Below, piece by piece: positions 38,939-40,952 of a DNA stretch of 64,000 bases. The DNA lies in the NCBI GenBank assembly GCA_009691725.1, contig SIAP01000003.1, positions 1-64,000 of the forward strand. The letters are read 5' to 3'. This DNA is from Phycisphaerales bacterium. Lineage in GTDB: Bacteria > Planctomycetota > Phycisphaerae > Phycisphaerales > SM1A02. The translations under genes and the position numbers were made by a program. The notes below the pieces were generated by a model. It was not told the DNA's origin, made no database searches, and worked only from the letters and a program-made list of their open reading frames with translations. Within the stretch, counting starts at the first letter, position 1. Each line of letters starts with the position of its first letter.

Positions 38939-39651
38939 TGGGTCGCGTCCCGAGACGCACTGGAGTTGTGCGCAGAGATATTCGCGGTGGCGCGAAGACT
39001 CACTTCGAGTGCCTCGGCGATGAGGGCATCGATCCAATTGCGCACCGTTGCGTAGGTCAGCAATGCGGGAATGGCGATGAAGAGACCCCAGAACGTGGTC
39101 ACGAGCGCAGTGCCGATACCGCCTGCGAGGAGCGCAGGGTCCGCCTGTCCACCCGTCGCCGAAACAGTCTGAAATGCCACGATCATTCCGTACACCGTCC
39201 CAAAGAGTCCGATCATTGGGCTGACTTGCGCGAGCACATTGAGCAATTCAATGGAACGAAATCGTCGCGCGGCGCACTCTTCGGCGGTCTGTTCCGCAGC
39301 ATCGACGGCGCCACGCCTTCCCAGCGGGAGCGTGTCGATTGCCGCGAGAGCGATACGCGCGAAATCGCTGCCGCTCGCAGCGGCAACGGCTCGTGCACCA
39401 TTCGTCCCCTGCGACGTGGACGCGCGGAGGAACGCATCGGCGGTTGCTGGAGGCATGATGACTGCGCGGCGATGCGCCATCAGCGCGACTGCAATCAGAC
39501 CGATACTGAAGATGCTCATCGCGATGAGCACCCAGATCATCACGCTTCCGACCCACTCGATCTGCTGCGACCCGTCTGGAAGCGTGCTTGATGAGAGAAA
39601 GAAAATGCGCGCAGCGTCAGCAGTTGAGGAGAGGAGGTCTGTGTTGTTCAT
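38935..39651 (-). CDS. MotA/TolQ/ExbB proton channel family protein
   Basis: NVLAQVSPMIGLFGTVYGMIVAFQTVSATGGQADPALLAGGIGTALVTTFWGLFIAIPALLTYATVRN. Confidence 0.93.
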   Translation of the reverse strand: MNNTDLLSSTADAARIFFLSSSTLPDGSQQIEWVGSVMIWVLIAMSIFSIGLIAVALMAHRRAVIMPPATADAFLRASTSQGTNGARAVAAASGSDFARIALAAIDTLPLGRRGAVDAAEQTAEECAARRFRSIELLNVLAQVSPMIGLFGTVYGMIVAFQTVSATGGQADPALLAGGIGTALVTTFWGLFIAIPALLTYATVRNWIDALIAEALEVSLRATANISAHNSSASRDATQ

Positions 39652-40952
39652 GGTGTTGGAAGTGTTGGGGAATGCGGGGTGGGATTCGATCGTGGTTCGG
39701 AGCGTGGTGATTCTGCGGCCCGAAGCACGGACTCGGCGCGTGCGACGGTGGTGTCGAGTCCGAAGGCGCGCGCGCTCTGCAGTGCTGCCGATGCGAGCCG
39801 TGTTGCGGTCCACGGATCACGGTCTGACAGCAGACTCATCTCCGCTGCGCTGACAAGTGCAATCGCCGACGCACTGTGCAGAGGCTCACCCAAACCAATG
39901 CGGAGAAGTTGGGTGCGTGCAGTTGGCAGATCGCCCGCCTTGAGCAGCGAAAGCGCGTGACCCAAACGGAGCGTGGTCTCGTCTTGCCGCGGGTCGATCG
40001 ACGCATCTTCCCAACCGCGGAAGTTCGCAAGGCGATCGATGAATCGGTACGCACCCGGTCCTCCATGCTCGCGCGCGATCGCTTCGAGTGCGCCCAGCGG
40101 TTCTTCCTCGATGAGGTGGATACAGGCGATCTGCACGGGGCGGCGACCGATCCGGGCATCGCGTGGATTCAGTCGGTCAAGAAACGCCAGCAGCGCATCT
40201 CGATCGGCGGCAACTTCCGCAACGCCCATGATTCCAGCGCTCACGATGATGATGGTGTCTGGCTGAAGCGCCAGCGCGGACTGCAATGCTTCTCGTGGAT
40301 CGCTCTCTCCGGCGGGACTGACTTCGTCGAGCAACCACGTCGAGAGTGCCTCGATGGCCCGTGATCCCAGTGTCGGTCCAGCGCGACGAAGTTCCGAGAT
40401 CGGCGGAACGATGACTCTCTTGGCTTGGAAGACGACCACAGCAAACTGCTGTTCCTCGGTCAAGCGCGAAATCGACTGAATCACTTCGCGGACTGCGCTG
40501 GGGTAGCCACCGATCATCGATCCCGAGGCATCCAGGACATAGACGATTCGTCTCGCCGCACTCTGCCGCACTCCAGCCACACTCACCAGTGTGCGGGGTG
40601 ACTCCAATCGACTCGTCGGTCGCTCAACGGAATTCAGGACGGATGCTTGATTCACTCGTGTGCGTCGATCCATCGCCTCTGATACTTCTGCCGCTGCGGG
40701 AACCGCCGGCGCTTCGGTCGCTCGACTCATGTTCGTCGTCGACGCATCGTCGGAGGCACCATTCGTCGTCTCTCTTGGTCGATCCATCGGCACACCCTCA
40801 AACGAGAAGATCGCCTCTGGTCGCAGGCTTGCATCAGGTTCTGTCTGGAGATGCCCCATCACAAACACACCAGTCGTCAACAACACCAACGCAAGCAGCG
40901 CGTGCATCGCAATCGACAGGATCCATGGTGCCCACTGCGTGACACGGCTCAC
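39648..40952 (-). CDS. VWA-domain protein with TonB-like N-terminal transmembrane anchor
   Basis: MSRVTQWAPWILSIAMHALLALVLLTTG (N-in anchor, SxxxH); IVYVLDASGSMIGGYPSAVREVI (MIDAS DxSxS). GTG start overlaps the doxX stop; its stop overlaps the exbB start. Confidence 0.88.
   Translation of the reverse strand: MSRVTQWAPWILSIAMHALLALVLLTTGVFVMGHLQTEPDASLRPEAIFSFEGVPMDRPRETTNGASDDASTTNMSRATEAPAVPAAAEVSEAMDRRTRVNQASVLNSVERPTSRLESPRTLVSVAGVRQSAARRIVYVLDASGSMIGGYPSAVREVIQSISRLTEEQQFAVVVFQAKRVIVPPISELRRAGPTLGSRAIEALSTWLLDEVSPAGESDPREALQSALALQPDTIIIVSAGIMGVAEVAADRDALLAFLDRLNPRDARIGRRPVQIACIHLIEEEPLGALEAIAREHGGPGAYRFIDRLANFRGWEDASIDPRQDETTLRLGHALSLLKAGDLPTARTQLLRIGLGEPLHSASAIALVSAAEMSLLSDRDPWTATRLASAALQSARAFGLDTTVARAESVLRAAESPRSEPRSNPTPHSPTLPTP

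What the first reader, a model, noticed from the sequence alone, without database searches (positions are those of the whole stretch)
39648..40952. VWA protein with a TonB-like energy-transducing helix encoded next to ExbB/ExbD
The N-terminus MSRVTQWAPWILSIAMHALLALVLLTTG aligns with the E. coli TonB anchor (PWPTLLSVCIHGAVVAGLLYTS). Ser13 and His17 match TonB Ser16 and His20 (SxxxH), and Leu24 matches Leu27; TonB Ser31 is replaced by Gly. The rest is a periplasmic VWA domain with an intact MIDAS (DASGSM) and no TonB C-terminal domain. Proposal (inference): proton-motive force harnessed by ExbB/ExbD is transmitted to a metal-dependent adhesion domain, i.e. a 'TonB-VWA' transducer rather than TonB-dependent import.
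Basis: partly seen in the sequence, partly recalled or inferred. Interest (0 to 1): 0.85.

Follow-up and report, generated by a model that had tools for sequence, protein, structure and literature searches.

The report
TonB-like motor anchor on VWA protein
A planctomycete protein that probably passes membrane-motor force into the periplasm through a TonB-type anchor carries a von Willebrand A domain where TonB has its usual tip; the arrangement is real and widely conserved in its phylum, but the class was already proposed in a 2025 paper and what it does is still untested.

Summary
The gene is on the minus strand (40952 to 39648, GTG start) in a tight run: DoxX, VWA, ExbB, ExbD, ExbD, an 854-aa solenoid protein. 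The TonB-like Ser13/His17 pair is not chance: in about 100 homologues from one order the aligned Ser is kept in 96% and the His in 98% (in every readable anchor), against SxxxH in 2 of 213 other N-terminal hydrophobic segments. Adjacent ExbBs keep docking residues Ser34 and Pro190 (48/48) and the pore threonines, but lack Trp38 (0/48). The genome shows no TonB or TolB domain and no TonB-dependent receptor, but has Omp85. The class, vWA force transducers with an SHLS helix beside a TolQ-like gene, two TolR-like genes and a TPR gene, was published for Planctomycetes in 2025 (PMC12204202). So this is a new member of a known, experimentally untested kind. Not in the passages I read: a DoxX partner, VWA-solenoid fusions where the local motor is missing, and loss of the docking Trp.

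The parts
39648..40952 (-). VWA protein with TonB-like N-terminal anchor (434 aa): TM helix 4-36 with S13/H17/L24, disordered linker, VWA 122-305, helical tail 325-414
40845..40943 (-). TonB-like transmembrane helix (residues 4-36); S13 and H17
   Evidence: Ser 96%, His 98% by alignment over 100 homologues
40788..40832 (-). Candidate D-box/'motor box' strand segment (residues 41-55, A47xF49...P55), about 25-35 residues after His17
   Evidence: A47 68%, F49 68%, P55 87% in an otherwise unaligned linker; D-box definition from PMC10907165; inference
40038..40589 (-). VWA domain (residues 122-305); DxSxS 141-145 and S217 present, last MIDAS Asp replaced by Ala239
39711..39980 (-). C-terminal TPR-like helical tail (residues 325-414), possible relic of the separate TPR gene of relatives
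   Evidence: hhalign to that TPR family E 2e-4, probability 48%: suggestive only
38935..39651 (-). ExbB/TolQ-like motor subunit (238 aa); Ser34, Pro190, Thr148 and Thr181 equivalents kept; Trp38 to Ile, Glu176 to Thr
38468..38938 (-). ExbD/TolR-like subunit 1, proton-site Asp present
38008..38475 (-). ExbD/TolR-like subunit 2, proton-site Asp present (exact start uncertain)
35456..38020 (-). 'P878': 854-aa all-helical TPR-like solenoid behind an N-terminal hydrophobic helix; co-conserved, and fused to the VWA protein in some relatives
40949..41659 (-). DoxX-family membrane protein, first gene of the run (start uncertain; ORF open to 41857)

Best explanation
The protein is a vWA force transducer. 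Its N-terminal helix docks on the outside of an ExbB pentamer through Ser13/His17, as TonB and TolA do. A short strand in the linker is captured by the pair of ExbDs. Proton flow through the ExbB/ExbD1/ExbD2 motor then pulls on or moves the periplasmic VWA domain, which hands the force to a periplasmic partner, most likely the 854-aa helical solenoid encoded in the same operon and, through it, to the peptidoglycan or outer membrane. Shown here: gene order, helix, Ser/His and docking-residue conservation, proton-site residues, VWA fold, solenoid fold, natural VWA-solenoid fusions, absence of canonical Ton/Tol parts from the genome. Inferred: docking, strand capture, direction of force, the partner, any outer-membrane role.
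For: Aligned Ser 96% and His 98% of about 100 homologues, background 2/213; exceptions examined individually. Profile score of E. coli TonB and TolA depends on the Ser/His columns. ExbB Ser34 48/48 and Pro190 48/48, residues that the cryo-EM paper places in the Ser-His network; Thr148/Thr181 48/48; ExbD Asp25 in 125/126. Operon in 45 of 60 order-level loci, and motor genes beside the SxxxH-VWA gene in most of 20 sampled phylum loci. Conserved proline-flanked island after the helix. VWA-solenoid fusions found with a profile built only from unfused solenoids (to E 6e-27, shuffles silent). Same proposal with AF3 modelling in PMC12204202.
Against: Trp38 of ExbB, part of the E. coli network, is absent in all 48. 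Outside Ser/His the helix scores like any membrane helix against TonB, so common descent is not shown. Where the ExbBDD genes are not adjacent the Ser/His pair is still kept, so it does not track adjacency (other ExbBs exist in those genomes). The D-box candidate is post hoc and AlphaFold leaves it disordered. No complex modelled, no phenotype known.
Confidence: 0.72

Rival explanations
1. The VWA protein is a regulator or assembly factor of the motor: the anchor docks on ExbB, but the VWA domain senses load or gates proton flow and transmits no force. The solenoid, or something held by it, is the working end.
For: Incomplete MIDAS argues against a tight metal-dependent ligand grip; the solenoid is co-conserved and fused to the VWA protein in some lineages.
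Against: Single-pass topology plus linker plus terminal domain is the TonB/TolA layout; the fused forms still carry the anchor, so anchor and solenoid act on one chain.
Confidence: 0.15
2. It powers adhesion or gliding, as a CglB-like system run by an AglRQS-type motor (one TolQ-like and two TolR-like subunits).
For: Same subunit count, one ExbB and two ExbDs; PMC12204202 suggests a gliding-type role.
Against: The VWA domain here is tied to the inner membrane rather than to the cell surface, and its MIDAS is incomplete. AglRQS genes were not searched for here.
Confidence: 0.07
3. The SxxxH match is coincidence in a hydrophobic helix.
For: Apart from Ser/His there is no resemblance to TonB above background.
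Against: 2/213 background against 96-98% conservation, and matched conservation of ExbB Ser34/Pro190.
Confidence: 0.03

Closest known systems
vWA force transducers (Williams-Jones et al. 2025, Mol Biol Evol, PMC12204202)
   Same: TM helix with SHLS motif, disordered linker, vWA domain, next to a TolQ-like gene, two TolR-like genes and a TPR gene; reported in Planctomycetes
   Different: Here the separate TPR gene between VWA and ExbB is absent and the VWA protein ends in a TPR-like tail; DoxX and VWA-solenoid fusions do not appear in the passages I read; supplements not readable
TonB-ExbBD and TolA-TolQR of E. coli
   Same: Ser-x3-His anchor, ExbB Ser34/Pro190/Thr148/Thr181, ExbD Asp25
   Different: No TonB/TolA C-terminal domain; ExbB Trp38 aliphatic, Glu176 to Thr; two different ExbDs; no TonB-dependent receptor or TolB found in the genome
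Myxococcus Agl-Glt gliding machinery (AglRQS motor, CglB VWA adhesin)
   Same: One TolQ-like and two TolR-like subunits; a VWA protein (from general knowledge and PMC12204202)
   Different: CglB is a surface adhesin, not fused to a motor-docking helix; not compared by sequence here
TPH-vWA proteins (second family in PMC12204202)
   Same: Membrane-anchored vWA next to a TolQ-like gene
   Different: Those lack SHLS and ExbD and carry an ExbD-like Asp in their helix; this protein has SHLS and two ExbDs

Membership tests
vWA force transducer (PMC12204202) | Single N-terminal TM helix with Ser-x3-His of SHLS | tested here: met
   Leu24 present, final Ser is Gly28
vWA force transducer (PMC12204202) | C-terminal vWA fold, no TolA/TonB C-terminal domain | tested here: met
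vWA force transducer (PMC12204202) | Disordered linker with predicted motor-box strand | tested here: inconclusive
   linker disordered; conserved proline-flanked segment, strand not modelled
vWA force transducer (PMC12204202) | TolQ-like gene, two different TolR-like genes and a TPR gene adjacent | tested here: met
   TPR-like solenoid by structure
vWA force transducer (PMC12204202) | TM helix docks on the motor through His | not testable with these tools
   no multimer prediction; ExbB docking residues only partly conserved
TonB | TonB C-terminal domain (PF03544/PF13103) | tested here: not met
   none in this protein or in the genome
TonB | Partner TonB-dependent receptors | tested here: not met
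   PF00593 absent from genome, controls positive
Tol-Pal | TolB present | tested here: not met
   PF04052 absent from genome; OmpA/Pal-type domains present
MIDAS-type VWA adhesin | Complete MIDAS (DxSxS, Thr/Ser, Asp) | tested here: not met
   DxSxS and Ser217 present, last Asp is Ala239

The most novel reading that the evidence does not exclude
In this planctomycete order the ExbB/ExbD1/ExbD2-VWA-solenoid machine is the main motor linking inner membrane to outer envelope, doing the work that Tol-Pal does elsewhere; some lineages lack the local motor genes and have welded transducer and solenoid into one protein driven by a motor encoded elsewhere.
Probability: 0.25. Interest if true: 0.72.

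Novelty: new member of a known kind. Interest (0 to 1): 0.4.

Why it matters
If the coupling is real, ExbB/ExbD motors drive more than nutrient import and outer-membrane constriction, and TonB-type anchors are modular adaptors for other periplasmic machines. In planctomycetes without TonB or TolB this may be how the outer membrane is energised. The class has no reported phenotype, so the order-wide conservation, the His kept in every readable anchor, ExbB Ser34/Pro190 and the natural fusions give concrete targets. The anchor idea itself is no longer new.

Tried and rejected
Chance SxxxH: rejected by background. Homology to TonB beyond Ser/His: not supported, scores fall to background when those two columns are blanked. 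Intact MIDAS: rejected. Pfam/NCBIfam naming: only weak VWA hits below cut-off and a weak sortase-target model for this protein. PDB sequence search with the VWA profile found VWA domains, no TonB chain. A regex count of the D-box candidate was post hoc, so only the column conservation is used. PDB fold search with the solenoid gave only generic TPR superhelices with low TM-scores.

Full report
What is there. The gene lies on the minus strand, 40952 to 39648, 434 aa, GTG start. It is the second gene of a tight run: DoxX-family protein, VWA protein, ExbB, ExbD, ExbD, and an 854-aa protein here called P878. Start and stop codons of neighbours overlap at DoxX/VWA, VWA/ExbB and ExbB/ExbD (sequence), which suggests co-translation. 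ExbB matches PF01618 at 3e-25 and the ExbDs match PF02472 at 1e-12 and 2e-13. The ExbB is nearer to TolQ than to ExbB by sequence.

The anchor. In about 100 homologues from the order, aligned Ser is 96% and His 98%. The exceptions were read one by one: one record is truncated, one is misaligned (its helix has the His but not the Ser), one has Ala for Ser, one second copy lacks the Ser but keeps the His. So His is present in every readable anchor. In the same loci, 2 of 213 other N-terminal hydrophobic segments hold SxxxH, and one of these is itself a protein beside an ExbB. Scoring E. coli TonB and TolA with a matrix of the VWA anchors puts them near the top of the background, but only because of the Ser and His columns; without these they are average. 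The likeness is therefore a shared docking motif and does not prove common descent.

The motor side. In the cryo-EM work, TonB Ser16/His20 contact ExbB Ser34 and Trp38, and Trp38 touches Pro190 (PMC12215075). In 48 ExbBs of this type, Ser34 and Pro190 are invariant, as are the pore threonines 148 and 181, but position 38 is never Trp (aliphatic or Met in 47 of 48), and Glu176 is Thr in all 48. The ExbD proton Asp is kept in 125 of 126. The docking network is thus conserved in part and altered at one residue.

The linker. TonB has a D-box; the peptide used, residues 43-54, is bound by an ExbD dimer (PMC10907165). About 25-35 residues after His17 the VWA linker holds an island of conservation flanked by prolines (A47 68%, F49 68%, P55 87%) in otherwise unalignable sequence. 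This is a candidate D-box. It was found after looking, and AlphaFold leaves it disordered without ExbD, so it is a lead.

The rest of the protein. AlphaFold2 (mean pLDDT 82.5) gives helix 4-36, a disordered linker, a VWA fold 122-305 and a helical tail 325-414; Foldseek matches are VWA/I-domains. The DxSxS loop and Ser217 are present, but the last MIDAS Asp is Ala239, and is Asp in only 21% of homologues. The tail resembles the end of the separate TPR gene that relatives carry between VWA and ExbB (hhalign E 2e-4, probability 48%), which suggests but does not show a fusion.

Context. A VWA homologue is in 184 of 201 genomes of the order and P878 in 176. Of 60 loci examined, 45 have ExbB and two ExbDs beside the VWA gene, 47 have P878 and 45 have DoxX; contig breaks lower these counts (in G161 the VWA gene ends one contig and the ExbB-ExbD-ExbD-P878 genes begin another). 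These loci were chosen by match strength and diversity, so they are not a random sample. The N-terminal motif is kept in the loci without an adjacent motor too; the 16 genomes searched, most of them such cases, all hold ExbBs elsewhere. In several genera the VWA protein is 850-930 aa and its C-terminal part matches a P878 profile built from unfused proteins only (E down to 6e-27, shuffled controls silent). P878 itself is an all-helical solenoid (pLDDT 90.9) with generic TPR-superhelix matches. Across the phylum 340 of 399 genomes match the VWA profile, some of them surely generic VWA domains; in 20 sampled loci, all that have adjacent ExbB also show SxxxH in the VWA protein.

The genome. PF03544, PF13103, PF00593 and PF04052 give no match, with positive controls; Omp85 and two OmpA domains are present. 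The assembly is 92.6% complete, so absence is likely but not certain. TonB-dependent import is therefore probably not the use of this motor.

Known or new. Williams-Jones et al. 2025 (PMC12204202) describe vWA proteins with an SHLS helix, next to a TolQ-like gene, a pair of different TolR-like genes and a TPR gene, in Planctomycetes among others, with AF3 models of docking through the conserved His and no known phenotype. The finding is a member of that class. I read the relevant passages, not the supplements. DoxX, the fusions, the Trp38 loss and the order-wide numbers were not in the passages I read.

Verdict. Real, well conserved, sensible mechanism at about 0.72, already proposed in print; the function is open.

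Noticed in passing
L037 (G000:C49:50000-69900), 8937-12724: A second SxxxH-VWA gene in the same genome with its own ExbB and two ExbDs and an extra ~395-aa protein between; its VWA keeps the MIDAS Asp that the window protein lacks.
   Followed up: partly
L039 (G000:C44) 3169-5398 and L040 (G000:C17) 2955-4986: Two further ExbB loci each encode a protein starting with an SVGLH hydrophobic helix and no Pfam domain (424-487 aa): more TonB-like anchors with unknown C-terminal domains.
   Followed up: partly
L041 (G000:C51:5100-25000), 9263-14366: A divergent MotA/ExbB-type gene followed by two small membrane proteins, and on the other strand a repeat-rich 727-aa VWA protein with a lipoprotein-like start and no TonB-like anchor.
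   Followed up: no
window 25070-32467: Genes that read like lipid A synthesis and two OmpH/Skp-like proteins lie beside an Omp85 gene (29816-30769 match), near the motor operon; only Omp85 was tested, the rest is from reading N-termini.
   Followed up: partly
L096 5741-7156 and 7220-8548; L094, L085, L091: Tandem duplicates of the SxxxH-VWA gene in some members of the order; in L096 one copy has lost the Ser but kept the His.
   Followed up: no
window 33559-34602: A sigma-70 family gene downstream of P878 is kept near the operon in many relatives; possible regulator or mere neighbour.
   Followed up: no
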